DNA of 64,000 nt. It comes from Siniperca chuatsi. Lineage: Eukaryota; Chordata; Actinopteri; Centrarchiformes; Sinipercidae. Under the pieces are notes generated by a model. It made no database searches. It worked only from the letters and a program-made list of their open reading frames with translations, and had not been told where the DNA came from. Location: assembly GCF_020085105.1 (NCBI RefSeq), contig NC_058062.1:4242945-4306944 (forward strand), in the 5' to 3' direction. Shown in pieces: positions 9,115 through 59,900 of this stretch; the first letter of the stretch is position 1, and the number at the start of each line of letters is the position of its first letter. Both the position numbers and the translations under genes were made by a program.

Positions 9115-12433
<3,319 letters not shown>

Positions 12434-23556: not shown

Positions 23557-26500
23557 ATGCAGAAGTGGATTGTGATCTGTTGGGCTCTCCTGGCCCTGGT
23601 TGGTGCTGATGAGTGTCCAGATGGAGGAAGATGTGAAAACGGTCAAAGCTGCTGCAACAACCCGGCCAACGGCTATGAATGCTGCCCGTTTGATCAGGTA
23701 GATGTGGTTGTACTACCTGCATGTTCTGCATTATAATTTGCCTGAGCAGATACACAAACTAATCACGATTACCCTGCCTGCTAATCCTACTTTTTGGAAT
23801 TAGTCATTGTACTTGATCATGTTCAAAATGAAGCTTTTGGGAGTTCAGATGATGTGCAGTCAAATGTTGACCATTTTAAATTCCAACTTCCCCCTAATTT
23901 TCACCTAAGTAGCTTCAAAATAACAAAAACATCCCAAACAGTTAGGCTATACCTTGCACCTGCTTGTTCCAACACAGCAATGATTCCTACACTATAAGAC
24001 ATAAGAGATAAGCGAAGAAGAGATGCATTTTTTATAACAGAAAGTAATACATATTTTTTGCATCAAATTATGCACAGTTTGTCTTAGTTTAATATATATT
24101 TGGATGTAATTTTGGATATAATGGATCAAACTGGATGCACAACATGCATTTTAATGCAATGTTACATATTAAGTCAAAATCTAGTTAAGACTACAATCTG
24201 AGTTGTTGACATTTTTTGTCATATAACATTTTTTCATGCCATAGAAATGTATAATTGCAAAGAAAACAGCATGTTAAATTTGCAGTTAAAACAAAACACA
24301 GCTAAAAACCAAACCAAACAGTCAACAGCTAGCTAAAACAACAGAGCCAAATCCAGTTAAAGCTAGCAAGAGATAGCCACAGTTAGCCTTGACTTAAGCT
24401 AAATGTACTTACTTCCCCCCTAACTGTTTCCTGTAATTGAAATATATCAGTTTTGGTGTACTAACATCTTGTTAATTTTGTTTGTTATCCCACATAAACA
24501 AGCTAGCAGCTAAATCAAATAATGGAGAATAAAAACAGCTAGCTAAACTAGTCCTGCTAAAAATGTAGCTAGCCTAGCTAACCAGAGTAGCAGTAACTGC
24601 CATCTCAGCTTTTCACCCTAGTGAAATTCACCATTTGTGTGATCAAGCTACTTTTAAATCACTTATTTAAATGTATTAAAGTGTAAATTAATTTATTAGA
24701 ATGATTTCAAGGTAATTAAATTATTAAAAATGGTAGATGGAAAGCTGAAAGAATACATTTTTTTGTTGATACTGTGTTTTCACATATTCCCTGAAGTTTC
24801 TCCAAAGGTCTGTATCACGATCTTTTTGTTCACAAAGACATAAAATGAAGGAATCCAGCTGTTACAGTTTACCCAGTCAGCCTGAAAACTTTAAACCCCT
24901 TTTTCTCAACTGCAGTTACAATTAACTTAACCTCTTAACACGATAAACCCCAGCAAAGTCATAGTAATTCAACTTAAGTAGAATACTTTGTCCCTTTGTC
25001 TCACATAGTTAAATGTACAAATGAGATAATCATTTTCTTATACTCTAAAATAAAAAGAATTAAGCCTGTACAGTGGTACTATTCATGCTCAGTGGTGTTT
25101 TACTCCTTTATGAGCCAGATAAAAGCTCAGGCCTCATATAGTCAGTGTGATAGCAGTTTTAAAACTTTGGTAGTCAAAATGTTGCTACTACTGCTGTCCT
25201 CGTAGGCTGAGTGCTGTGGAGATCACATGCATTGCTGTCCTGGGGGAACAATCTGCGATTCAGCCACATCCAGCTGTGTGAACGCTACTGCGTCCTTCCC
25301 CTGGGTGAAAAGAGCTTCTGCTGATCAACCTGGACTCTCTAAAGTGAGAACAACAGACATCTGCTTTCATGATAAAATACTAAGTAAGACTTTGGCGTAT
25401 TTAAGTTGGCGAGTTCCTGCACTAAGATTGTTCCCCTTTTCCGTCCTGTCCGTGCAGTCCTTCAGGATGATCAAGACGTACATGGGGGAGGAAGACGACA
25501 ACATCTGTCCTGATCAGTCACGATGCCCACCTGAGTTTTCCTGTCTGAAGGCCTTGACAAGGTTTGGCTGCTGTCCCCTAGCTCAGGTAGTCAAACCTTG
25601 TCCAACACAGATATAACATGCAACTTGTCTCCATATATCATTTTCAAATAGTGGTACAATTATCAGGAAAAAAGAGGTAATAACAGGTACCAATTTTCTT
25701 TCCAAGGAATTGCTACAAGGTCATTTAAGGGACAAACTGGAGAAACGAAAAAGAAATATCAAAGAACAAAAATAACAAAAACAGGAAATAAAGACCAAAA
25801 CCATGAAACCAAGTCCATGGTGTCCATTAGTAAACAACTCATACAGTAATACTGGTGGTATTATGAGTGCATATGTTATGCAAAACTGAGATCTGTTTTC
25901 CAAGAGTCCAGTTACTTCCTGTCACAAAGATGATATTTGCTTGTTTGGTTGACAAACTAAGCTGTTTCACTTCACTGAAGGGAGTAAATATGTTGGTCTT
26001 GTGGTAAATTTAATATAGAAGCTGCAGCTCTGAAGAGGAAGAAGCTCCCTGCGTTCTGCTGTAAAGTTATCTGCTGTATTGCTTTACATCAACAATGTAC
26101 AATGCAGTGCAGAGACCAGTAAAGGCTCACTATCTGGCAGCTTCAGATGTCTATTACACCTATTTGGAGTAATACAGTTAAGACTGATCCCTTGTTTCTT
26201 TATAGACATATTAACTTGTGAATTGTATGGTAAAAATGATTACAAGAGGGAATGCATTTATGAAGTGAATTGTTCTGAGTGATTTCCTGGCCCCTAACAG
26301 GGAGTCCCCTGCTCTGATGGGAAACACTGCTGTCCTGAGGGCCACCAGTGCAGTTCAGACAGCCGCTCCTGCATCAGAAAAGGTGAAACTCTTCTACTTT
26401 GAATTGGCTTGTTGTTGAGATAAACTTGCCTTACTCTCGTAAGGGAGTTCCTTCGATCTTAAGGCCCCTAAACTTATCATAGACACATTTTTTTAATTTG

Positions 26501-29500
26501 TTATGTTGTTGCAGATATTGTGACTACAGTTCTGTGCAGCGACGGAGTGTCAGAGTGTCCAGATGAAACCACCTGCTGTGAAACCCCAGAGGGCAAGTGG
26601 GGATGCTGTCCCATGCCAAAGGTACAAAATGGCTGATCTTTTCATTATAGACATACGCAAGGTGACAGCTTTGAAATGCTAATGCTATTCCATACCATAA
26701 GTGAGATAATTAATGAAGAGAAAGTCAAATGATGGATTTGCATGTCCGGCCTCCATGTCCAGTGATCGTGACTTTATTGTGTCTTATCATGTGTGTTTCA
26801 AAGGTTATACTCCATGTGTCTCTATTGTCTGAACAGGCTGTGTGCTGCGAGGATAAGACACACTGCTGTCCTGAAGGGACAACATGTGATATCGAACACA
26901 ACAAATGTATTTCCTCATCTACCAAAAAAGAGATGCCAATGTGGGCCAAACTCCCTGCTAGGATGAGGGCAGAGTGGGAGAACCAGAAAGGTCCACCCAT
27001 CTTACTTCCTCATTTTGATTAATCATTGTCTAAATTTGAATGTGTGTTCATGCAGCTCGATCTCTGTGTGTTTCCACTTTCAGAGGCTGAACAAGTTTCT
27101 GCAGAGACAGTAAATGTTGGTGGCTCAAAAAAAAACCCCGAAGTCACCCCAGTGAATACAGTTCCTCATTCAGAGAAGGAAGTGTCTCTGTCATCTGTCA
27201 CTAAGGCAGCTGCAGGTGAGATGTTGAGATGTAACAATAAAGTAGAAGAGCATCACAGATGTATCATAAGATGCAGATGCTTTGATCCACAACAAAGGTT
27301 TAAAGTATTTTCTGATAGGTAAAGGTACAAATGTATCAACAGACCTTTCTTGTAGCAAACGTTTTGATTTAATAACATTAATAATGGCTGCAAGTCATTT
27401 AGTGTAGGCGTGTCAGTGACCAGCATGACTTACTGGCACAGCTAAATGTTGAAGCATTTCCTACTATGACAAGACTAAATTTATGCTGTTGGACAGGTCT
27501 GTCGAGGCTAAAAGTACAGCAGTATTCTTCCTGCATGCAGTAGGTCAGGTAGCAGTAGGTTTGGCATCGGTAATAGTATCAGCAATGTATCATATTTTGG
27601 TAACCTGAAGGAAGAGGTTTAAAAAGTTTTTTCAAAAGCACTGGCAGTATTGCTGGTGTCTATTAGCTGAAAAAACAACTTTTAAAAGTTTGTCCAGATT
27701 GCATTTCTTCCTGTGTCAATGCTGGTCAGCTCAGGTTTAACATTGAATGTAAAATTAAAGGTGCCCTGTGGAGTTTTCTTTTAAACAAACAAAAGTTATG
27801 TTTACATTCAGTGCATTTCCTTCCCCATAAGTTTTAAAAAATATTATAACTCCTGCATGGTTTAAATCCATGTTTGCTCGCTAGCAGACTTCTTTTTCTT
27901 TGCCTTTGTTGGTGTATTGCTAAGTTTCTTTCTGCGTTAACACCACCAACTGTCCGTTATCGGAATAGTGTGAAACCAAAGGCAGGATGTGAATCGCATC
28001 GCATAAAACGGGGACCCACTCGTAAAAACACTGCGCCATAGTGCTACTAGTGGTCAAAAAATTCTACAGGGTACCTTTAAATGTAACATTAAATTGTAAT
28101 TGTCGGGCCCGACAGTCCTTTCTCTCACGGCGGACATTTGAACTCATCAAGTCAAAAAATAAGGCAGAGGAATCACATGACAGCCAGAGACAGCAATGAC
28201 AAGAGAATGAAATTAGGACACAAATCTTCCTCAGTATTGTCTAACGTGACCTGTGCTGTACCCTTTGTCAGGGCACTATCCCCACAGTTATCATTGCCAT
28301 ATTTTAAAGGAACATTTTGTTCACTTGGGATATATGAATGTACTTTTCTAGGTGCAATAGTGGGGCTACAGAAATGGATTGTCAGGATAGGGCACCATAT
28401 TATACCTGGACTGTCCCAGTGGCATGTTTTAGTCAAAATGTTGTTCAAAATGTTCAATTCTGCAGTTTTCGGATTTGTAGGAAATGTTACTATTGGTATT
28501 TTTTTCCAGGCAGTGATGTCCCCTGCGATGATACAACAGCCTGTCAAGATGGCACCACATGCTGTAAAACCAAAGAGGGCGGCTGGGCTTGCTGTCCTCT
28601 ACCAGAGGTACAATTTTGGCTGCCACTTTTTAGACAGTCCTAACACTGATTTTAAAGGTGTTGGCCAGTGCATTCACGGTTTTTCGTCTTTCTCATTCGT
28701 CATTCCCAGGCTGTTTGTTGTGAAGACTTCATTCACTGCTGCCCAAAAGGTAAGACATGCAACCTGGCTGCACAGACCTGCGACGACAACACATGCTCTG
28801 TGCCGTGGGTCGACAAGGTACCCACAATCCCCAGGCAGGGCGCACAGGTGGGGAATGTTACATGTGACTCCACCTTCAGTTGTCCTGATGGCACCACCTG
28901 CTGCAAGAAAACGACAGGAGACTGGGGCTGCTGTCCTCTACCTCAGGTAAACACACAGAGCAGAGAATCACATTTAAACAGATGGTAGTAAGATGATAGG
29001 TTAACAAGGAAGGTATGTCGCTTTACTATTGGATTGATGAGACCAGCTGATTGAACAGCTGATATCTGATCTGACAGCCCCGGATAATGACAGCAGGAAA
29101 TATGAGTGAGCATGCGTGAACGGAGTGAATGGCAGGATGGAATGAGAATTAACTACAACCTGAACATGCAGAAGTATAGTCTTCCTGACTGAACTTTCGA
29201 TAGAGCTTCATTTCCCAAAACACTGAACTATTCCTTAAAGTTATGAAGTGTATTTGACCCCTTTTATATTCATATTGTCTGCTCTTGAACTTGGCTTTAC
29301 TTTGACAATACCCTCACCTCATGCAAATTCACACATCTAACTGTCACTTAATGTTTGAGACTGAAAGTAATTTTGTCATTTTGTTCAAAAGGCGGTCTGT
29401 TGTGACGACCACGAACACTGCTGCCCTACTGGCACCACCTGTGACCTGGCCACACTCAGCTGTCAGAGCAGCTCAGGCTCAACGCCCATGCAACGGAAGA

Positions 29501-32500
29501 TGCCTGCATTTGCCACGGCGGCGCCCACTACAGTGGCGACTTCAGCCCAAAGTACAGTTGTCACAACCACACAGCAAACGGGGACCCACTCGTAAAAACA
29601 CTGCGCCATAGTGCTACTAGTGGTAAAAAAATTCTACAGGGTACCTTTAAATGTAACATTAAATTGTAATTGTCGGGCCCGACAGTCCTTTCTCTCACGG
29701 CGGACATTTGAACTCATCAAGTCAAAAAATAAAGCAGAGGAATCACATGACAGCCAGAGACAGCAATGACAAGAGAATGAAATTAGGACACAAATCTTCC
29801 TCAGTATTGTCTAACGTGACCTGTGCTGTACCCTTTGTCAGGGCACTATCCCCACAGTTATCATTGCCATATTTTAAAGGAACATTTTGTTCACTTGGGA
29901 TATATGAATGTACTTTTCTAGGTGCAATAGTGGGGCTACAGAAATGGATTGTCAGGATAGGGCACCATATTATACCTGGACTGTCCCAGTGGCATGTTTT
30001 AGTCAAAATGTTGTTCAAAATGTTCAATTCTGCAGTTTTCGGATTTGTAGGAAACGTTACTATTGGTATTCTCTTCCAGGCAGTGATGTCCCCTGCGATG
30101 ATACAACAGCCTGTCAAGATGGCACCACATGCTGTAAAACCAAAGAGGGCGGCTGGGCTTGCTGTCCTCTACCAGAGGTACAATTTTGGCTGCCACTTTT
30201 TAGACAGTCCTAACACTGATTCTTTTTTTGGACAGACCTAAGAGATGCTGAGTGTTTGGAACAGCAAAATCTACTGTAGCACACGCAAATAGTTTTAACA
30301 ATGTGAATCACTTTTATGTTGAAATAATGGGTAATATAATGTTGTAAAATGAGAATTTATTCATATGAAAGTATCACACATTATTTATTTAAGGGAACAG
30401 TTCAACATTTTGGGAAATATGCGTATTCGCTTTCTTGCCGAGCGTTAGATGAGAAGATCGATATCACTCTTGTGTCTGTACGGTAAATTTGAAGCTACCA
30501 CCAGTAGCCGGTTAGCTAAGGTTAGCATAAAGAGCTAGCTTAGCTTAGTAGAAAGACTGGGAACAGGGTTTTCTTTGGTTGTTGTACAGATTAAATAAGC
30601 ATTATATACCATGTTAAGCATTAGGTGCTGGTAAGTGGATTTTTTTTTACCTCTGGACAGAGCCAGGCTAGCTGTTTCCCCCTGTTTCCAGTCTTTGTGC
30701 TAAGCTAAGCTAACCAGCTGCTGGTTGTAGCTTTATATTTACCATACAGACATACAAGTGGTATCTTTTCATGTAACTCTCAGCAAGGAAGAAAATAAGC
30801 GTATTTCCCAAAACTGAACTATTCCTTAAAGTTATGAAGTGTATTTGACCCCTTTTATATTCAAATTGTCTGCTCTTGAACTTGGCTTTACTTTGACAAT
30901 ACCCTCACCTCATGTAAATTCACACATCTAACTGTCACTTAATGTTTGAGACTGAAAGTATTTTTGTCATTTTGTTCAAAAGGCGGTCTGTTGTGACGAC
31001 CACGAACACTGCTGCCCTACTGGCACCACCTGTGACCTGGCCACACTCAGCTGTCAGAGCAGCTCAGGCTCAACGCCCATGCAACGGAAGATGCCTGCAT
31101 TTGCCACGGCGGCGCCCACTACAGTGGCGACTTCAGCCCAAAGTACAGTTGTAACAACCACACAGCAAACGGGGACCCACTCGTAAAAACACTGCGCCAT
31201 AGTGCTACTAGTGGTAAAAAAATTCTACAGGGTACCTTTAAATGTAACATTAAATTGTAATTGTCGGGCCCGACAGTCCTTTCTCTCACGGCGGACATTT
31301 GAACTCATCAAGTCAAAAATAAAGCAGAGGAATCACATGACAGCCAGAGACAGCAATGACAAGAGAATGAAATTAGGACACAAATCTTCCTCAGTATTGT
31401 CTAACGTGACCTGTGCTGTACCCTTTGTCAGGGCACTATCCCCACAGTTATCATTGCCATATTTTAAAGGAACATTTTGTTCACTTGGGATATATGAATG
31501 TACTTTTCTAGGTGCAATAGTGGGGCTACAGAAATGGATTGTCAGGATAGGGCACCATATTATACCTGGACTGTCCCAGTGGCATGTTTTAGTCAAAATG
31601 TTGTTCAAAATGTTCAATTCTACAGTTTTCGGATTTGTAGGAAACGTTACTATTGGTATTTTTTTCCAGGCAGTGATGTCCCCTGCGATGATACAACAGC
31701 CTGTCAAGATGGCACCACATGCTGTAAAACCAAAGAGAGCGGCTGGGCTTGCTGTCCTCTACCAGAGGTACAATTTTGGCTGCCACGTTTTAGACAGTCC
31801 TAACACTGATTCTTTTTTTGGACAGACCTAAGAGATGCTGAGTGTTTGGAACAGCAAAATCTACTGTAGCACACGCAAATAGTTTTAACAATGTGAATCA
31901 CTTTTATGTTGAAATAATGGGTAATATAATGTTGTAAAATGAGAATTTATTCATATGAAAGTATCACACATTATTTATTTAAGGGAACAGTTCAACATTT
32001 TGGGAAATATGCGTATTCGCTTTCTTGCCGAGCGTTAGATGAGAAGATCGATATCACTCATGTGTCTGTACGGTAAATTTGAAGCTACCACCAGTAGCCG
32101 GTTAGCTAAGGTTAGCATAAAGAGCTAGCTTATCTTAGTAGAAAGACTGGGAACAGGGTTTTCTTTGGTTGTTGTACAGATTAAATAAGCATTATATACC
32201 ATGTTAAGCATTAGGTGCTGGTAAGTGGATTTTTTTTTTACCTCTGGACAGAGCCAGGCTAGCTGTTTCCCCCTGTTTCCAGTCTTTGTGCTAAGCTAAG
32301 CTAACCAGCTGCTGGTTGTAGCTTTATATTTACCATACAGACATACAAGTGGTATCTTTTCATGTAACTCTCAGCAAGTTATTTCCCAAAACTGAACTAT
32401 TCCTTAAAGTTATGAAGTGTATTTGACCCCTTTTATATTCATATTGTCTGCTCTTGAACTTGGCTTTACTTTGACAATACCCTCACCTCATGCAAATTCA

Positions 32501-35500
32501 CACATCTAACTGTCACTTAATGTTTGAGACTGAAAGTATTTTTGTCATTTTGTTCAAAAGGCGGTCTGTTGTGACGACCATGAACACTGCTGCCCTACTG
32601 GCACCACCTGTGACCTGGCCACACTCAGCTGTCAGAGCAGCTCAGGCTCAACGCCCATGCAACGGAAGATGCCTGCATTTGCCACGGCGGCGCCCACTAC
32701 AGTGGCGACTTCAGCCCAAAGTACAGTTGTAACAACCACACAGCAAACGGGGGAGGAGAAGAATAAGCCTGAGGAGGATGAGGTGATGACGAAGGAGGAG
32801 GAGGAGGAGAATAAAGAAGGGAAGGGCAGGATTCAGTGTGACACCCACACCAGCTGCCCTCAGCACACCACCTGCTGCTTCATGGCCTCGTCTCAAAAGT
32901 GGGGCTGTTGCCCACTGCCAAAGGTGAGCACTGCTTCTTCACAACATCACTGACCTCCAGTAACAGTGAAAGCTGCAATAACGAGGACTTTACTGTCTCA
33001 AAGCATAACAATAATAATAATAATAATGTGAAAGGGGTCGCACAGTCAGAGACTACCTGGTGAACATAGTGGAGCAATTAGCAGCTAAAGAGCCAGATGT
33101 TTCCCTCAGGAGCTGGTGGAGACCAAAAACAGAGCTAAAAGAGAGAGAGTATTGGACTTACATTCATCGGGTGACACAAACACGACTCCTAATTAATGAT
33201 AATGTTGCTCCATAGCTGCTGGATGTGTAAATAAGCAGCTGTTTGCTAACAAGTTCACCACATCAGCATTCAAGGTAATAATACTGTATGTCAGTGTTGT
33301 GTTCACAGCTTGTTCTGCTTCCCCCAGATGGCCAAAAAAATGTATTATTACATGTTTAAAATGATGAATTGATTCTTCAAATGGTTGTCGATTAATTTTC
33401 TGTCATTTAATTGACTCTACTAATCAAATACTGTACAGGGCGTTGATCAACACCAACAGCTCAGCAGTTGATTAGCCAGTTTTGTGGTTTTTAAAACTGG
33501 TTTTAAAAGATTGTACTCCTTCATGGGGAAAAAAACCCCACCCACACCACACACCTACTCACAGTGTAGGATGGTGCTGCAAAGAACTGAGTGGCATCAC
33601 TTTCTCAAAGAGACAAAGCATGGTGATATACTTCCTCTTCTGCAGTGCCATCTCTGCTCTCTTCTGTGTTAACTTCTGACATTATTATTTCTGTCAGCTA
33701 CAGGCCACAGTCAGTAGTGCAGTTCCTTCAGGCTGTCACTCCAAAGTTATAAATGATATTACGAGATTAATTACTGCAGTTGTTCTTGTAGAAGATCACT
33801 ACATGATCATGTTTTTCACTCTTCTAAATGTATTCATTTGAAAGAAGAACTGGAAAACAGGATCGATGGTGTGAAAGCAGAACTTCCACTCTCACTTCTC
33901 CCCAGGCGGTGTGCTGCGCTGATGGGAACCACTGCTGCCCCACCCACTACAAGTGCAATGAGCAAGGGTCCTCGTGCGTCCAAGGAGAAGTGGTGATTCC
34001 ATGGTACACCAAGCTTCCAGCCACCACCAGCATCCAGGCTGATCCCAGCTCTGTGCAGTGCGACGGTCTGAGTCAATGTCCCGAACACACCACCTGCTGC
34101 CAGCTGTCCACGGGCGAGTGGGGCTGCTGCCCGCTGCAAAATGTGAGCGCTCTTTGTGTGTGTGTGTGTGTGTGTGTGGGGGGGGAGAGATTATTGTGAC
34201 GAGCGCAGCTACTTTGACATGAAAATATAAGCTGCACTATCAGTATACATTAGCTTTGTGGAGGTTTGCTTATGTAAAATAAGGGATGTAATTGTCACTT
34301 GTGCATGCTGTGTGTGCAGGCTGTGTGCTGCCCAGATAAGGAGCACTGCTGCCCACAGGGTTACACCTGCAACGTCGCCTCTAACTCCTGTCAGAAGCTC
34401 ATCATGCTGCAGCTGGAGACTGTCCCGCTAACACCGGTGTATCTGTCTGAGCATCAACCCCAGCTCAGTCCCTTAAAGCACAGAGACGTCCAGTGTGATG
34501 AACAGACCAGCTGCAAAGATGGACAGACCTGCTGCAGGATGTCAGCTACTACATGGGGCTGCTGTCCTTATACTAATGTATGATATACAGTAATAAGTCA
34601 GACCTTTAAAGAATAGTCCAACATTTTGGGAAATACGTGCTACTTTTACTTGCTTAATAATATTTGCTTTCTTGATGGCAGTGGTATCAATCTTCTCATC
34701 TGATTCTCAGCAAAAAATTTAATGTCAAGCTATTTCTTTAACCACCTTTAGACAGTCAGGAAGATACATTTATTTTTTACAATATAATAATATTGTATAA
34801 ATGTTTTAAAGGCAGCCTTTCAGTAACATGATTCATTTATTTCTGAACTTATTTCAGCTGTTAAATCTGTGCTGGAAACTAACCACATTTACTCAAGTAC
34901 TGGACTTAAATGCAATTTTGAATATATATATATAATATATATTACACTCCTTTATACTTCTACTACTCCGTTACATTTCAGAAGGAAATATTTAACTTTT
35001 CACTCCACTTTTCGTTTGACAGATGTAGTTACGTTAGATTAAATTTACATATTAGTGCAATAATCCAATAATTCTGCATAATGAGGACGGCCATTTCAAA
35101 TCCTTTATATAGGGGCTTTAATATTGAGGTACTGCATCATGATGATTAATAAATAAGTACTGTACTTCAGTACAATTTTATTTGACAGCTTTAGTTACTG
35201 GTTACTTTGTAGATAAAGATATTACATATAAAAACACATGATCAGCTTATAAAGAAATGGTCTATTGCTATAGATGAGACTAACCAACACTGTGTAGTCA
35301 ACGTTAGCTCCACCTTGACCAGCTGCAACATTAAAATGCTGCTATATGTTCAGATATAATAGTCCAATAATGTAACTCATATAATAATACAACGCTCAGA
35401 AAGGAGCCATAATGAGTACTTGTACTTAAGTTATATTAAAGGCTGTTATTTTCTTGTATGTTTATACTGTAGTATTGCTACTTTAACTTAACTAACGCAC

Positions 35501-35701
35501 CTGATTGTTCAGTGTGTTCCAGTGTTACATACCCTCCTTCCTTTGACCTCTCCACAGGCGGTGTGCTGCAGCGACATGATGTACTGCTGTCCCACCGGCT
35601 ACACCTGTACTGAAAGTGGAGGCTGCATCCAGAACACCAGGCTCCACTGGTACAACTGGCACGTGTTCGTCGCCAACAAAAAGAGAGCTCTGATATTGTG
35701 A
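23557..35701 (+). CDS. grna: Progranulin (granulin a)
   Basis: Secreted and lysosomal growth factor cut into cysteine-rich granulins. A leader exon ends at 22858; ATG at 23557 opens a signal peptide ([17 protein letters not shown]). Coding exons: 23557-23697, 25206-25343, 25458-25586, 26301-26382, 26515-26621, 26837-26990, 27084-27215, 28510-28607, 28710-28946, 32561-32923, 33906-34142, 34320-34577, 35558-35701. Used together they give 739 codons and eight granulin modules, each split between two exons: an N-half such as [20 protein letters not shown] and a C-half such as [17 protein letters not shown]. Module 2 is divergent (CPPEFSC, no CC pair). Exon 27084-27215 is a granulin-free linker; a Glu/Lys-rich linker lies in 32561-32923. 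The C-terminus ends RALIL, comparable to the sortilin-binding tail of mammalian progranulin. Exons between 29392 and 31767 are surplus copies from a tandem duplication. Confidence 0.9.
27755..28080. mobile_element. MITE with 23-bp inverted ends
   Basis: Left end 27755-27777 (TTAAAGGTGCCCTGTGGAGT...) and right end 28058-28080 are inverted copies differing at a few positions. The element is non-coding and sits in the grna intron before exon 28510. Its right part (from 28014) belongs to the tandemly repeated block, so truncated copies end at 29650 and 31241. Confidence 0.85.
29392..29595 (+). pseudogene. grna exon copy 1, truncated by duplication junction
   Basis: Copy of the start of exon 32561-32923. 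It has the AG acceptor and encodes [19 protein letters not shown] and the Thr/Ala-rich linker, then crosses the junction after ACACAGCAAACG and stops at TAA 29593-29595 (reading TGTHS then stop). It lacks its second half and its donor. If spliced after 28710-28946 it yields a progranulin ending after module 5, 473 codons in all. It could therefore be an alternative terminal exon rather than dead sequence. Confidence 0.75.
30080..30177 (+). pseudogene. grna N-half granulin exon, copy 2
   Basis: Duplicate of 28510-28607 with the same protein ([20 protein letters not shown]). Acceptor and donor are intact. It enters in phase 1, so it can follow exon 27084-27215 in frame but not any exon that ends in phase 0. 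It is thus a mutually exclusive alternative to copies 1 and 3. Confidence 0.7.
30390..30835. mobile_element. MITE (TTTTGGGAAATA family), unit 2 copy
   Basis: Inverted ends: CAACATTTTGGGAAATATGC at the left and, read inverted, AGTTTTGGGAAATACGC at the right. The interior carries the GCTAGCTTAGC-rich sequence common in fish MITEs. The same insertion is at 31980-32405 in unit 3 (right end slightly shortened); a degenerate relative is at 34600-34740, and a right-end remnant lies at about 29210-29240 in unit 1. Confidence 0.8.
30983..31186 (+). pseudogene. grna exon copy 2, truncated by duplication junction
   Basis: Second truncated copy of the C-half granulin exon, again ending in TAA (31184-31186) just beyond the AAACGGGG junction. 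It has an acceptor and no donor. Confidence 0.75.
31670..31767 (+). CDS. grna N-half granulin exon, copy 3
   Basis: Third copy of the 98-nt exon, with one visible protein difference (KTKESGW where copies 1 and 2 have KTKEGGW). Splice sites are intact and the next exon is the complete 32561-32923. The path 27084-27215, this exon, 32561-32923 is in phase and would give a 660-codon progranulin without exon 28710-28946. Confidence 0.6.
31980..32405. mobile_element. MITE (TTTTGGGAAATA family), unit 3 copy
   Basis: Duplicate of the element at 30390-30835 carried by the tandem duplication. It differs by small changes including loss of about 13 bp near the right end (AAGGAAGAAAATAAGCG in unit 2). 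Confidence 0.8.
33065..33275 (+). repeat. Dispersed repeat, copy in grna intron
   Basis: Contains AGCAGCTAAAGAGCCAGATG and AGCTGTTTGCTAACAAGTT blocks, matching 59715-59900 over about 180 bp. It is a non-coding dispersed family. Confidence 0.75.
34876..35490. repeat. CTCCACTACATTTA-type repeat in last grna intron
   Basis: Long copy of the family described at 7986-8400, here with ACATTTACTCAAGTACTGG at the left and TACTTGTACTTAAGTTATAT near the right end. It fills most of the intron before the terminal exon. Confidence 0.7.
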
Positions 35702-51272: not shown

Positions 51273-54200
51273 CGTTCTGCACATGCGCAAAAGTCAGTGC
51301 ATGCGCAGACTCTAGCATGTTTTACGACTGCCCGATCCTTACCACCACAGACTGTATACAGTCTGTGCTTAACGCGCATGCGGGATTCTTTACGTCGGTT
51401 GGTTGTTGTCATGGATGTATAACATGATAATGGTATCGGTAGTTATTGGCGGTCAAATTAGCAAATTAGTGATAGGAGATTGAGCTATGTCTGATAACGT
51501 TACTGAGTTCTATGAAGCCCTCCGGCAATATCTAGAGGGCCGGAAAATAACACCACTGGTGGACAAGGTTGGGCGAAAGAAAGTCACCCGGGTGGCTAAT
51601 AACTACGTCCTAAAAGGTAACTAAAGGGTGGCTGATAGCTAGCGTTACGTCCTAAAAGGTAACTAACGTTAGCCAGTTATTGCTAGCTGAGTTAACGTTA
51701 GCTAACGTTAGCCAAAACAGGGCTTGAAGTTAAGTTCTTGCTCACCATCTGTTACTGTGGTTGAGTTATAAAATAGTTGATTTCTAAAGTTATTTGCTAG
51801 TTATAGTTTGTGTAATAATGTGTATAATAATAATAATAATGAGATATATTTGTCATCCATAGCTTACCAGGACCTATATGTATGTTTATCATTACATGTT
51901 AATAAATCTATCATTCTTCCTCATGATTATATGAAGTAATGTCAAGCCAAGTGTAAAGCACATACCACAAAAGTTGTATTAGAGAATGCACATGAATAAA
52001 CACCTGTGTCTTTCATAACATGTCATGAATTCAAGTGGTCAGAGTTTTTAATAGATTGATTAGCTAAATATCAAATGAATATCCAAAGAAAAACTAACTT
52101 TACCACAGTAAATCTTGCCACTGCCTAAATTCACCCTTTTTTTCTAGTTGGCTAGTGTTAATGAAAAGCCATGGAAGCAAGTCACTGAAACATGTCTTTT
52201 TTTTTCTCTCTACACAGACAATCAGTTATTCTATACTGGCCCCAGCAGGCAGTACATGAGGCTGGTTGTTCTGTCCGACAAACAAAAGCGGGCAGTACTG
52301 GAAGAGTGTCACAACAATCCTGTCAAGGGCAGCCACAATGGTGTGAGGGGCACCAGAGACAGGGTGGTTGCCGGATATTACTGGTCCAGTTTAAAGGCAG
52401 ATGTCACAGATTGGGTGAAGAGTGTTTTTCATAGGATTGAATCGAACATCACGGCTTTCACACACCGAATCGTTTTACAATTTACTCTATACAACTTCAG
52501 AATTCACATCTTATCTGTCTTGTCTTTTCAATATGCATGACATTTAATTTCTGTATTAAACAATGAATCCCTACTTCAGGTCAAATGTTGTCATCTCTGT
52601 CAACTGAACGCCCCAATTAAGACGGTGGCACCAGTTCTGCATCCAATCAAGGTAGGGTCGACTGCCTAATATACAGTTTCTATGAAAAAAACTTATGCAA
52701 GGTAATGTGCTAATAGCACATATCTCCACAGGTGAAAGACGCATGGGAAGTGGTGAGAATGGACCTTATTGGCCCTCTAAGGGAGACAGCCAAAAAGAAC
52801 CAATATGTTTTCACTATGACCGATCTGTACACCAAATGGGTCGTTGCAGAGCCTATGCAAACCAAGTCTGCAAGTGAGGTGTCAGCGGCATTGATATCCA
52901 AACTGTATTTGTTTGGAATGGTCCGTAAAATAATTTCGGACCAAGGGAGAGAATTTGTGAATAAGGTATGTGTTCAGAGACAGTATATTTCACTTCCTAC
53001 ACACACCCCCTGTATATATTATTGCCTCATTTCTGAGACCGACAGATCTGATGCAATGTTATGTCTTTCTTAATTACGTACAGCTTAACAGCAGAATCTT
53101 TGAGGCGCTGAACATTAAACATGCAGTGTCCAGTGCATACCATCCCCAAACCAATGGCCAAGTAAGTTTGTTACCACACACATCCCTTTGTTTCAGTGTG
53201 CTTGGACACTGGCTTAAAAGACACCAACAGACTAAAAATATTATTGAGAAAATACAACCCTAAAAATACATATCATAAATCTAAAAGGCAGCCAGCAAGA
53301 ATAAATCCAAACAAGCAGACAAATCAACAGATGCAGGAAACAATAATATAATTTTTGCCAGCTGCCATTAGGTTTTATAATTCATCCCTAGACAATGCCC
53401 TCTTAGAGTAGCTTTCTTATTATTTTTATGGTGTTTTTATTTTATTTCGTTACAATTGCATCACTATCAGTAATGGATCTTTTATGTACAGACTGTTCGT
53501 TTGCTTTGTGTGTATGTACCCGGTTGTCACAGAAACTTTCACAACACAAAAAGGGATAGGTCATTGTTGTTTAAACAGTCAATCTTTTGTGTGCTTGGAA
53601 TGTGTGTTTAGTCATTTCATTGTGTATTTTTATGGTGAAGGACAGAGGCACCAACCAAAACATAAAGCGTGCCCTCGGGAAATATATCAACGAGGAACAT
53701 GATGATTGGGACGTGCATCTGCCTGCCATTGTACATGGGATCAACACTGCAAAGCAGGTGGGGTTTTTTTTTAATGTAATGTTATAAACTGAAATGTTCT
53801 AATATTACCTTAACTGTTGTATAGTGAGTGAAATCATGCATTTTAAAAGTGAAATCTTTATGCATTTCAAAAACTTTCTTAAAAATTAGAGCTCTACACA
53901 GTACAGTCCGTACTATCTTCTTTTCCACCGACATCCCTGTCTCCCAGAGGTGATGAATGCGTGTCCCATGGGAGAAGCGTTCGAAGTACAGGACCCGGAG
54001 GAAGAGCTGGATAGGAGATTGACTGACATTAAAGCTCTAAATGAAAAGGTTGGGACTCTTGTAGAAGACACCAGCAATTGCATGTGATGTAGTGTACTAA
54101 GTTCTATGTACTAATCTTTTAGGTTCTCAGCAACATCGAGAGGGCACAGAGTCACCAGAAAAGAAGCTACTCAGAAAGGAAACGAAAGTGGGTCAGACAA

Positions 54201-54854: not shown

Positions 54855-55664
54855 AGTGCTCTTCCATTCAGGCGCTACAGAGCTCTGTACACCAAAACAA
54901 CCAGACACACAAACAGTTCCTTCCCACAGCCCGTCACTCTGACGCACAGTTAACATCCGTGTCAATAACCCTGTAACACTGGAAAACATCCACTGTGCCT
55001 ACAAATGATAAATTATATATTTTATAGTTTAAATACACTTTGTATTTCGTTTTTAACATGTAGGATACATTTCATCATCACTGTCAAATATGAATCCAAG
55101 CAAGCTGTATATATACATAAATGTATACATACATACTGTATAACCACCTGCATTATGTATATAAAGTAACCTATTACATGAATCACTATTTATTTCTGCA
55201 CCTTGTTGTATTCTTGTTTACAATTTAGTTTGACTTGTACATAGACACTGTATGTTGTTGTTCACTGTTGCTTTTATATATATTTATATGCGCATCTTTT
55301 TTTAAACTAAGTATTCAAATGTTATGCTGCGTTATACTTTTACTCCACTACATTTATTTATGTGACAACTTCAGTTACTTTCAGATTCTGATTTTACAAA
55401 CAAAACATATGATCATCTTAAAAAAAAAAACATTTGTTATAAACTATACAAATTAAAATTAGCTCCACCTCGACCAATAGGCAGTCTTACGTATTTCCGG
55501 TGAAATCTCAGGCTGCTTGACAACTTCCGCCGAGCGCGCAACCTAATGCTAGCATAGTAACGCTAGTCATGTAGCTAGAAAAACGGCACAAACTACATCT
55601 GTTTACTACTATTTTTCTATTTTTATCCCCTTTTTTTGTTGTGAGGTTTGTGTTACGTTGAGCC

Positions 55665-58600
55665 ATGAGCGCAAAACGTCTGAATGTAGTCAAATTGCAA
55701 AGACGAGAGGACAGCAGTAACAGCCACCACTGCTGTGTCCCGCTGTGTACAGCGTCTGCCAGGTTCAACTCCGTCCTCAGTTTCCACTCGTTTCCCAAAG
55801 ACAAAGAACGGCAGAAGAGCTGGGTAGTTAATATCCGACGAAACAACTTTACCATAGCTACTCACATAAGAGTCTGCAGCCGACACTTTCAGAGTACAGA
55901 CCTGATTGAGGCTCCAACTCCAGCCGGGCGTAGACGTCTGAAAAACGGGGCTGTCCCGGTGCTTTTTCACTGGAACAACTTTACCCTGCCCGCCCCAACG
56001 AATACAGACACAGCCCAAAATAAGGATCTGTCTATGGATGTAGCTCTTCAACATCACGACTACTGCTCCACTGCTGCACTTGATCTGTCCCTGGACCACA
56101 CTGAGGATAACCGAGTGGAGACAGTCAGGTTACAGAAACAAATGGAGGAAACGGCTATCAGCAACAAGTTCGGCTTGGAGCGATTTGCTGCTTCCGACGA
56201 CGACATAAGGTTTTACACGAGGTGAGCTAAAATGTTATTTCTCTACAACAGTGTAATGTCTATTTTTATAAAAGTATTTATTCTGTAAACGTTGCCATTG
56301 ATTGTTATTTTATACCCTCAAATTACTGCTATGATGCTGTCATTTCCTCGCGGAATGGGGCGGGGTCATGTGTGGGCGGGGCTGGACGTCCGGTGGGCGG
56401 GGCGTGTGATATCACAGTGAGACAAACAGCACCATCTGCTGGACGACTGCGAGAAGTACAAATACAAATCTGTATGAAACTTACATTTAAAACAACTTTC
56501 CACTAATTTAAATGCATAAATATATTTCACATATACATTTTTTATACAACATGTGGTAATTTGGTACTACTCTGCACATACAGTATATACTGTCCATATA
56601 ATGTAGATATAAAGTAAATATATTGTTTGTCCCCAAGTCATCACATGCATATGTTTTATATTCAGTATATTCTAGTATATTTAAGTTCATTATTTAATAT
56701 TATTTATTTTAATAATTTATTATTATTTATTTATTATTTAGTCAGTACTGTGCATACTCACATCTAGTCCATTTATTTTAAATGCTACATTGATATGAAT
56801 GATAGAAAAAGCAATATAACAATATGATAAAATTGAGGGCGATGTTTAATCATGAAAGATACGACCGAAGGTAAGATAAATATATGTATTATGGACTGTT
56901 GTTGTTGCTGAACAATCAGAGTCATTAAACTATTCATTTTGCCATAAAAAATATCCCTATTTACTGTCTGATTCTAATGAGGGCAACTAAAAGTCGTCAC
57001 GGCTGCACAAAATGTAAACGGGTTACCGAACTGCAAGGGTTTTAAAAAAATGTTATACTCTATAATGTGCAAATATAACCTATCGTCACTTTGGAGCCTA
57101 ACTAAGAAATCACATCCACATTGCTCAGTTGAAAGCCAGTATTTTAGATTACTGTACAGAACTTTTCCCATTACGATGTTCTGGAAGCTTCTTGTTGGCA
57201 GCACACAGCCTATATAGCTTCATATTTATGACATATTATAAGAAACACAAAATGCGTTATGCAATATGACTGGTTTCACACTAATCAATACAGTCTCTCT
57301 GTCAACCAGCAACTGAACAAATGATCAAAATGATTAAACAAATGTGTGTTTTGTGATGCGTTGATGTTGTAACTGCATTTTAGCTGGTTGAAAAGAGGGC
57401 GAAAAGGGGTTTTAGACGTTCAGACCGAATATCACATTCAACTAGAAATCAACGTTGAAATCCCGGTTGGTGGACTCACAATGGTTTTAGGGAAGGGAAG
57501 GGCAACCCCGCCTTTTATCCGACCTCGCCCCATTCCACATTCAGCGGCGAGGACCCTCTCATCATATCTGCAATTCAGTACAGTTGAGTACACACTTACA
57601 TTTGGCCCACAGGTTTGCAACTCACGCTCACCTGATGGCCTTTTGGAGACAGATAGAGCCAGCAACACAAAAGATTATGCCTGTGACGAGGGCAGGGGCC
57701 GCAGATAAGACTAATGAGGTCCCTCACACTGGCAATGCAACGGTACATTTTTATTTTTGTGATTCTGAAGATAATGCATTGTTTTGGTTTGTAATATAAT
57801 ACATTTTATCAGTCTGGTTTCTGCTTGTTTTTGTCAGCAAGTCACTGTCTTAAAGTTAACAGCTGTAAAGGTTAGGCCTTAAAATCTTTAATGTGTCTTT
57901 CAAAATGTGGTATTTTAACATTTACTTTTATTTTTTAATTATTTGAATTAGAATTAGTTATGTCAATTATGGTCTGTCTGTGTAATATGAAGATGATTGT
58001 ATCTAAAATGTACTGTATGTTCTTTTTACAGTCTCTGCAACCCATTGATGAGTTTTTTCTGTTCATGGCCTCTCTGTCGTTGGGTCTGATGCAGAAAGAT
58101 CTGGCCTACAGATTCAAAATCGACCAGTCAGCGGTGAGCCGCATCATCACAACATGGGCTAACTTACTTTATTCTGTACTTGGTGCTGTGGGCATTTGGA
58201 TGTCTGAGGAAGCAGTAAAGGCTCACCTGCCAGATGTTTTTCAGAACTACTCTGATACACAAGTGGTGTTGGACTGCACTGAACTGCGTTGCCAAACGTC
58301 AGTGTTTTCTACCAATAAATCCCACTGCACCTTTAAAGGGTTGATTGGTGTGGCCCCTCATGGGGCAGTAACATTTGTGTCAGCTCTTTATGCAGGCTCC
58401 ATCAGCGACAAAGAGATCCTGATGCAGTCTGGCATTGTGTCCCTCCTCAAACCAACAACAGCCATCATGGTAGACGAGGGTTTCCTTGTGGAGGACTGTG
58501 TGCCCTGCAAGATCTACAGACCTGCCATCTTAGCCAAGAGAGCACAAGTGTCTGTGCCAGAGGTCAGCGAGACACAGTCTATCGCAAGACTGAGGGTCCA

Positions 58601-58748
58601 TGTTAAGCGACTCATTCAAAGGGTGAAGGAGCACAAGATATTCAGTACAGTGATCCCTCTTTCAGCCACAGGTAGCATCAATCAACTCTACACAGTTGCC
58701 TGCCTCTTGGTTAACTACCAAAACGGGCCCTTAGTCAAAGCTGGGTAA
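55665..58748 (+). CDS. THAP domain / DDE (HARBI-like, DDE_4) transposase gene
   Basis: Three exons, 55665-56221, 57613-57742 and 58032-58748, join in phase through GT-AG introns to 467 codons without a stop. Residues about 23-100 form a THAP zinc finger: CCVPLC, later CSRHF, and the closing AVPVLF. Then come the linker FGLERFAASDDDIRFYTRFA, a helix-turn-helix (LMQKDLAYRFKIDQSAVSRI) and a DDE nuclease domain with D in VVLDCTEL and D in IMVDEGF. The third acidic residue, normally E in RxHVERxI, is K here (RVHVKRLI, codon 58605-58607). The architecture matches ISL2EU-type elements; their YqaJ exonuclease partner was not seen, nor clear terminal repeats. It is either a recently silenced transposase or a gene retained for DNA binding. 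No cellular orthologue was recognised. Confidence 0.85.
56345..56410. promoter_or_regulatory. GC-box cluster in transposase intron 1
   Basis: Three GGGCGGGG or GGGGCGGGG motifs (Sp1-type GC boxes) within 60 bp, in an otherwise AT-rich intron. They could form an internal promoter or be left from an element end. Confidence 0.35.
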
Positions 58749-59489: not shown

Positions 59490-59900
59490 GAATTATCAGC
59501 TGAATCTGCAGCTCCCGTCGGCTTTAAAGGAGCTTTCTGACTTTCAGCTCATTGCTTATCTGTCCAGCTGCAACTTTACTGTTTTGGTTCAGAGTCGCTT
59601 TCAGCCGCAGCAGGCAGCTGTTATCAGTGAAAAAGCTGTAAAAACACGCTGTACACTACCTGCTCAGCAGTAGACAGCAGACAGACACAGTTAGAGACTA
59701 ACTCTTCAACATAGCATTTAGCAGCTAAAGAGCCAGATGTTTCCCACAGGAGCTGGTGGAGACCAAAAACAGAGCTAAAAGAGAGAGAGTATTGGACTGA
59801 CATTCATCAGGTGACACAAACACAACTCCTAATGAAGGATCATGTTGTTCCGTAACTGCTGGATGTGTAAATTAGCAGCTGTTTGCTAACAAGTTATTGT
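59490..59900 (+). repeat. Dispersed repeat, second copy
   Basis: The part 59715-59900 matches 33065-33275 in the grna intron. The upstream part (CTGCAGCTCCCGTCGGCTTT, CAGGCAGCTGTTATCAGTGA) seems to belong to the same element. The single open frame here (59488-59673) is not supported as a gene. Confidence 0.65.

What the first reader, a model, noticed from the sequence alone, without database searches (positions are those of the whole stretch)
28006..32752. Near-identical tandem triplication inside the progranulin gene
Three head-to-tail units of about 1.57-1.59 kb interrupt grna. Introns and exons are both nearly identical between units, so the event is very recent, or the assembly has stacked haplotypes or repeats. 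Progranulin dosage and domain number matter in lysosomal function, so an intragenic triplication segregating in a fish would be notable.
Basis: seen in the sequence. Interest (0 to 1): 0.85.

Follow-up and report, generated by a model that had tools for sequence, protein, structure and literature searches.

The report
Tandem triplication inside fish progranulin gene
A piece of a fish's progranulin gene occurs three times in a row, but the copies were cut in the middle of an exon and two of them lack an exon, so the array does not simply add protein domains; gain and loss of such domains is already a known habit of this gene.

Summary
They are not uniform. The 1.0 kb shared by all three differs by 0.8-0.9% in each pair. 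The 0.56-kb core of U1 holds a granulin exon (B) and a dispersed repeat; U2 and U3 have instead an old inverted-repeat element and no exon B. Both unit junctions are identical and carry an 8-bp microhomology between an intronic dispersed element and a CN-type exon. I read this as a microhomology-mediated tandem duplication, a second round by unequal exchange, and complementary deletions. Haplotype stacking is unlikely, but no reads were available. The junction cuts the exon: C1 and C2 run into an in-frame stop and have no good donor before it. Inclusion of C1 truncates the protein at five modules; skipping gives eight or seven; a weak latent phase-1 donor would give ten. Near-identical module arrays are described as recurrent in progranulin genes, in zebrafish GrnA in what appears to be the same slot (PMC4527844). 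A real and instructive structure in the assembly, a new member of a known kind; function unproven.

The parts
23557..35701 (+). Predicted GrnA-type progranulin gene, coding part; exon order sn-c-n-c*-n-c-y-[array]-cn-cn-cn-c, the first of these cn exons being C3
   Evidence: Half-module motifs and splice sites; eight Pfam Granulin stretches in the A1-B-C3 model; order compared with Table 2 of PMC4527844
27755..28080 (+). Dispersed element in the intron before exon A1, holding the left breakpoint; its last 75 bases start each unit
   Evidence: 55 matches listed in the genome, this place and two of the array units among them; the longer matches elsewhere 69-80% identical; breakpoint alignment
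28006..29575 (+). Unit 1 (1570 nt)
28510..28607 (+). Exon A1 (N-half of a granulin module), acceptor phase 1, donor phase 0
28710..28946 (+). Exon B (C-half plus N-half), only in unit 1; best matched by the first CN exon of the paralogue on C20
28956..29213 (+). Dispersed repeat TE1, only in unit 1; copies elsewhere 80-90% identical
29392..29595 (+). Truncated exon C1 (C-half), running through the junction into an in-frame TAA at 29593-29595
29576..29583 (+). Junction U1/U2, microhomology AAACGGGG
29576..31166 (+). Unit 2 (1591 nt)
30080..30177 (+). Exon A2, identical to A1
30385..30831 (+). Old inverted-repeat (MITE-like) element in unit 2, also in unit 3; its right-hand terminal stub is left in unit 1 at about 29210-29238
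30983..31186 (+). Truncated exon C2 with the same in-frame stop (31184-31186)
31167..31174 (+). Junction U2/U3, same microhomology
31167..32744 (+). Unit 3 (1578 nt)
31670..31767 (+). Exon A3, one substitution from A1 and A2 (Gly to Ser)
32561..32923 (+). Complete exon C3 (C-half plus N-half), in which the right breakpoint lies (32745-32752)

Best explanation
A real, recent, two-step tandem duplication inside a GrnA-type progranulin gene. Step 1 (inferred from the junction): a break or replication slip joined AAACGGGG inside exon C (32745) back to AAACGGGG inside a dispersed element in an upstream intron (28006), giving two copies of about 1.6 kb. Step 2 (inferred): unequal exchange between copies gave a third. 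In between, unit 1 lost the inverted-repeat element and the sequence beside it, and the ancestor of units 2 and 3 lost exon B. Coding consequence (follows from the sequence, given the exon model): exons C1 and C2 are cut between their C-half and N-half and read into an in-frame stop, so inclusion of C1 gives a 473-residue, five-module product; full-length protein needs C1 and C2 to be skipped, giving eight modules (A1-B-C3) or seven (any A joined to C3). I expect mixed output, mostly A1-B-C3 or A3-C3 with some truncated transcript, that is, an array that lowers or diversifies progranulin rather than adding modules. The splicing part is a prediction only.
For: Three units, two identical junctions, 8-bp microhomology; by hand, with equal base frequencies, the chance of 8 or more bases of homology at a random junction is about 1 in 10,000. 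U2 and U3 share the same core, with 2 differences in 566 sites plus small indels. U1 keeps a stub of the inverted-repeat element that U2 and U3 hold whole. Exon B is matched best, in both halves, by the first CN exon of the C20 paralogue, exon A by the N exon before that one, and the N-half of C3 by the third CN exon (8 window halves against 12 C20 halves), so B is probably ancestral. Frames, stop and donor scores. No second copy or haplotig seen (capped search).
Against: No reads, no second individual, no related fish and no transcript were available. In the parts shared by all three units, U2 and U3 are hardly closer (8 of 998 sites) than either is to U1 (9 of 997, 9 of 996), so the order of duplication rests on the shared core. 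That B is ancestral rests on one diverged paralogue, with a narrow margin for the N-half of B (score 124 against 118 for the next best). Splice scoring used consensus weights recalled from memory; the predicted E6 donor scores below the latent site.
Confidence: 0.58

Rival explanations
1. Assembly artefact: two or more haplotypes of a gene with one or two units were laid end to end.
For: Unit divergence (0.8-0.9% in the shared parts) is of the size of ordinary heterozygosity in fish (recalled). No reads were seen.
Against: Both junctions are the same and join two non-homologous places over 8 bases only, so the junction itself must exist in reads (inference); U1 has a different core; the window has no N; the assembly has 65 contigs for 719 Mb (these may be scaffolds). 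In the 64-kb window and 20 kb of C20 compared with themselves, no other tandem near-identical repeat of 150 nt or more appeared, only one dispersed 183-nt pair. A true two-unit array inflated to three is not excluded.
Confidence: 0.12
2. Functional module gain: a latent phase-1 donor inside C1 and C2 (after 29551 and 31142, AAA|GTACAG) joins them to A2 and A3, turning CN exons into C exons and giving a 911-residue, ten-module progranulin with near-identical halves in series.
For: The site lies before the stop, in the only phase that fits exon A, and scores best of the five phase-1 GT sites before the stop in each of C1 and C2. The joined model is open throughout, with 120 cysteines. The product has the n-c series that Table 2 of PMC4527844 gives for zebrafish GrnA after the y exon.
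Against: The site is weak: 25% of 3923 GT sites in the window score as well, and 11 of 12 predicted donors of the gene score better. A phase fit alone has about a one-in-three chance.
Confidence: 0.15
3. One-step triplication by replication template switching, possibly between two alleles that already differed in the core (with and without exon B), so that the array is younger than its divergence suggests.
For: Star-like differences: 5, 4 and 4 unit-specific substitutions in the shared parts; U2-U3 is hardly closer than the other pairs there.
Against: U2 and U3 share the whole core, with 2 differences in 566 sites; a second round by unequal exchange explains that without alleles that differed beforehand.
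Confidence: 0.15

Closest known systems
Tandem near-identical granulin modules in progranulin genes (zebrafish GrnA modules 4-7, Xenopus, lamprey, Aplysia; PMC4527844: passages and sections 14, 15 and 19 read)
   Same: Tandem duplication of granulin exons inside one Grn gene, near-identical copies; here after the y exon, which by Table 2 is also where the zebrafish GrnA n-c series begins (my reading of the table)
   Different: Here the breakpoint lies inside a CN exon and leaves an in-frame stop; intron copies are still nearly identical; one exon is missing from two units; module gain is not shown
Tandem exon duplications with alternative use of copies (PMC9013439 and PMC9741552: titles and starts of abstracts in the search listing)
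   Same: Duplicated exons A1, A2 and A3 have the same phases and could be used one at a time before C3
   Different: No transcript evidence; A1 and A2 are identical and A3 differs by one residue, so a choice among them would hardly change the protein
Microhomology-mediated tandem duplication (recalled, no paper read)
   Same: 8-bp junction homology, no inserted bases at the junction
   Different: Mechanism inferred from the junction only

Membership tests
Progranulin (GrnA orthology group) | Series of cysteine-rich granulin modules after a signal peptide | tested here: met
   Eight Pfam PF00396 stretches in the 739-aa model; the signal peptide was judged by eye only
Progranulin (GrnA orthology group) | Modules split over N and C/CN exons with phase-0 introns inside modules | tested here: met
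   Frames of the predicted exons; phase-0 rule as stated in PMC1310530 (passage)
Progranulin (GrnA orthology group) | GrnA-type exon order with a five-cysteine c* in module 2 and a y exon after module 3 | tested here: met
   Exon order here against Table 2 of PMC4527844; the N-half of module 2 here also has only five cysteines, which the table does not show for zebrafish
Progranulin (GrnA orthology group) | Synteny of GrnA | tested here: inconclusive
   Neighbours: mitochondrial carrier (SLC25A39-like, name recalled), RUN-domain gene, ribosomal protein L3; the GrnA synteny figure is not held, only part of a GrnB legend was seen
Near-identical module array of progranulin genes | Tandem near-identical module-coding exons | tested here: met
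Near-identical module array of progranulin genes | Extra modules present in the protein | not testable with these tools
   No transcripts; with C1 included and no cryptic donor used the frame is closed by a stop
Assembly false duplication | Units are allelic copies, absent as a series from single molecules | not testable with these tools
   No reads; indirect evidence against

The most novel reading that the evidence does not exclude
The locus is a snapshot of how n-c module arrays are born in GrnA: a duplication whose breakpoint falls between the C-half and N-half of a CN exon turns CN into C, loss of exon B reduces the unit to one n-c module, and a latent phase-1 donor puts the copies in frame, so that this fish makes a ten-module progranulin in the slot where zebrafish GrnA has its near-identical modules 4-7.
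Probability: 0.13. Interest if true: 0.6.

Novelty: new member of a known kind. Interest (0 to 1): 0.36.

Why it matters
PMC4527844 says that near-identical module arrays arise independently throughout metazoa and that their origins remain unclear (passage). Here intron copies and junctions are still readable, so the breakpoint, a likely order of events and the immediate splicing problem can be seen directly. It may also be a natural fish allele in which progranulin output is lowered or altered, testable with one RT-PCR.

Tried and rejected
Simple domain gain by concatenation: rejected as the default because C1 and C2 end in a stop, and B (phase 0) cannot be joined in frame to A2 (phase 1): that model stops at residue 581.

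Other donors in C1: ten GT sites lie before the stop. The best score is at 29394 (-1.65), only three bases into the exon; the latent site 29551 is next (-2.3); 29591 (CTC|GTAAAA, -2.97) is in the wrong phase. The best of all between C1 and A2, 29622 (0.73), lies beyond the stop. C2 gives the same picture, with one site changed (31150).

Exon B as a late insertion into unit 1: disfavoured; no other DNA copy of it was found (capped search) and it has a likely counterpart in the paralogue (8 window halves against 12 C20 halves, the first three N and C halves and the last C half of C20 left out). The C-half of exon C has no clear counterpart there.

Poly(A) idea: AATAAA at 29728 and 31318 follows the C1 and C2 stops, while the U1 counterpart at 28158 reads AATAAG. 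Not used: all three units also have ATTAAA (28088, 29658, 31249), and an AATAAA lies upstream of the array in the same intron (27236).

A survey of other chromosomes for a base rate of such arrays could not be made; only the window and 20 kb of C20 were compared with themselves.

Own errors mended: exon C starts are two bases off and some exon borders one base off; the set used is the final one. The C-half motif count (7 for the main model) misses one half that my pattern did not fit; Pfam gives 8 stretches.

Full report
Observation. The window has three direct units, U1 28006-29575 (1570 nt), U2 29576-31166 (1591 nt) and U3 31167-32744 (1578 nt), followed by the last copy of an 8-base word AAACGGGG at 32745-32752. 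In the 719-Mb assembly the search with U1 listed 44 matches: 5 are the array itself, 39 are to one dispersed repeat inside U1 (only the best 40 of 739 candidates were scored, so this is a capped view).

Units compared. In the outer parts shared by all three, U1 differs from U2 at 9 of 997 sites, U1 from U3 at 9 of 996, and U2 from U3 at 8 of 998; U2 and U3 differ at 2 of 566 in their common core. Unit-specific substitutions number 5, 4 and 4. The core of U1 (28652-29209) is different: it holds exon B and a dispersed repeat (28956-29213; 80-90% identical to the other copies listed). U2 and U3 hold there about 155-165 nt without another match (capped search), then an old inverted-repeat element (30385-30831; longer matches elsewhere 70-86%). 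U1 keeps only the right-hand terminal stub of that element. So the claim that introns and exons are alike in all units fails for the core of U1.

Breakpoints. At the start of U1 the sequence is ...CGCATA|AAACGGGG|ACCCAC..., inside a dispersed element (27755-28080). At the end of U3 it is ...CACAGC|AAACGGGG|GAGGAG..., inside exon C3. Both internal junctions read CACAGC|AAACGGGG|ACCCAC. This is what a microhomology-mediated tandem duplication leaves; the second junction is a copy of the first, as unequal exchange would give. At an assumed 3-6 substitutions per 10^9 sites a year (recalled), 0.6-0.9% is roughly 0.5-1.5 million years; conversion between units would make this too young, allelic differences at the start too old.

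Order of events. U2 and U3 share the core, so they are probably sisters, but their shared outer parts do not show it (8 differences against 9 and 9). A one-step origin is therefore kept as a rival.

Is it an artefact? Against: own substitutions in each unit, a different core in U1, identical junctions between non-homologous places, no N in the window, no haplotig seen. For: the divergence is of the size of fish heterozygosity (recalled), and I had no reads. I give 0.12.

Gene. Predicted exons E1-E7, A, B, C, D, E and F with GT-AG borders make a 739-residue protein through A1-B-C3, with eight Pfam Granulin stretches. The order sn-c-n-c*-n-c-y-n-cn-cn-cn-cn-c fits the start of the zebrafish GrnA scheme in Table 2 of PMC4527844, with the y exon after module 3. 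A paralogue lies on C20 at 3.637-3.654 Mb. Half by half (8 window halves against 12 C20 halves), exon A matches the fifth N exon best (62%), exon B the first CN exon (68% and 61%; the margin for the N-half is small), the N-half of C3 the third CN exon (66%); the C-half of exon C is ambiguous. So A-B-...-C is probably the older order, and U2/U3 lost B. The name grna rests on exon order; the neighbours (mitochondrial carrier, RUN-domain gene, ribosomal protein L3) are suggestive only.

Coding effect. Exon A has a phase-1 acceptor and a phase-0 donor, B is 0-0, C has a phase-0 acceptor. C1 and C2 cross the junction and meet TAA at 29593 and 31184, three codons beyond the shared word. Nine splice models were translated: A1-B-C3, 739 residues; A1, A2 or A3 to C3, 660 each; A1-B-C1, 473; A2-C2, 394; the latent donor used in both C1 and C2, 911; in C1 only, 825; B joined to A2, closed at 581. 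The latent donor AAA|GTACAG is weak by a consensus score with recalled weights: 25% of 3923 GT sites in the window do as well, and 11 of 12 predicted donors of the gene do better. It is the best of the five phase-1 sites before the stop in each of C1 and C2. Hence the array most likely forces skipping or truncation; module gain is possible but not favoured.

Known or new. [quoted passage not shown] PMC1310530 (passages) also describes intragenic multiplication. In the listings of the searches I saw no report of this locus, but the species is not known to me and only the top rows were listed, so this says little. What this case adds is a young array with readable junctions, a breakpoint inside a CN exon, and complementary loss of parts.

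Noticed in passing
window 9239-10655, - strand: Ribosomal protein L3 exon (PF00297) with two snoRNA matches on the same strand: SNORA54 (9239-9371) and U83B (10564-10655).
   Followed up: partly
window 55662-56225 and 57939-58748, + strand: A THAP-domain frame and a DDE_Tnp_4 transposase frame of 269 aa, 1.7 kb apart; possibly parts of one DNA transposon.
   Followed up: partly
window 52148-53073, + strand: Frames that look like a retroelement integrase region by eye; not searched.
   Followed up: no
window 33073-33255 and 59713-59895: A 183-nt dispersed repeat pair at 93% identity, one copy just downstream of exon C3.
   Followed up: no
L035-L036 (C20:3636000-3655999): Paralogous long progranulin gene with five CN exons by motif; no direct repeat of 150 nt or more at 90% identity within these 20 kb.
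   Followed up: yes
window 28158, 29728 and 31318: AATAAA in U2 and U3 about 133 nt after the in-frame stops, AATAAG at the matching place of U1; but all three units also have ATTAAA nearby.
   Followed up: partly
window 34142 and 34577: Predicted donors of exons D and E follow a T (AAT|GT), unlike the other predicted donors of this gene.
   Followed up: no
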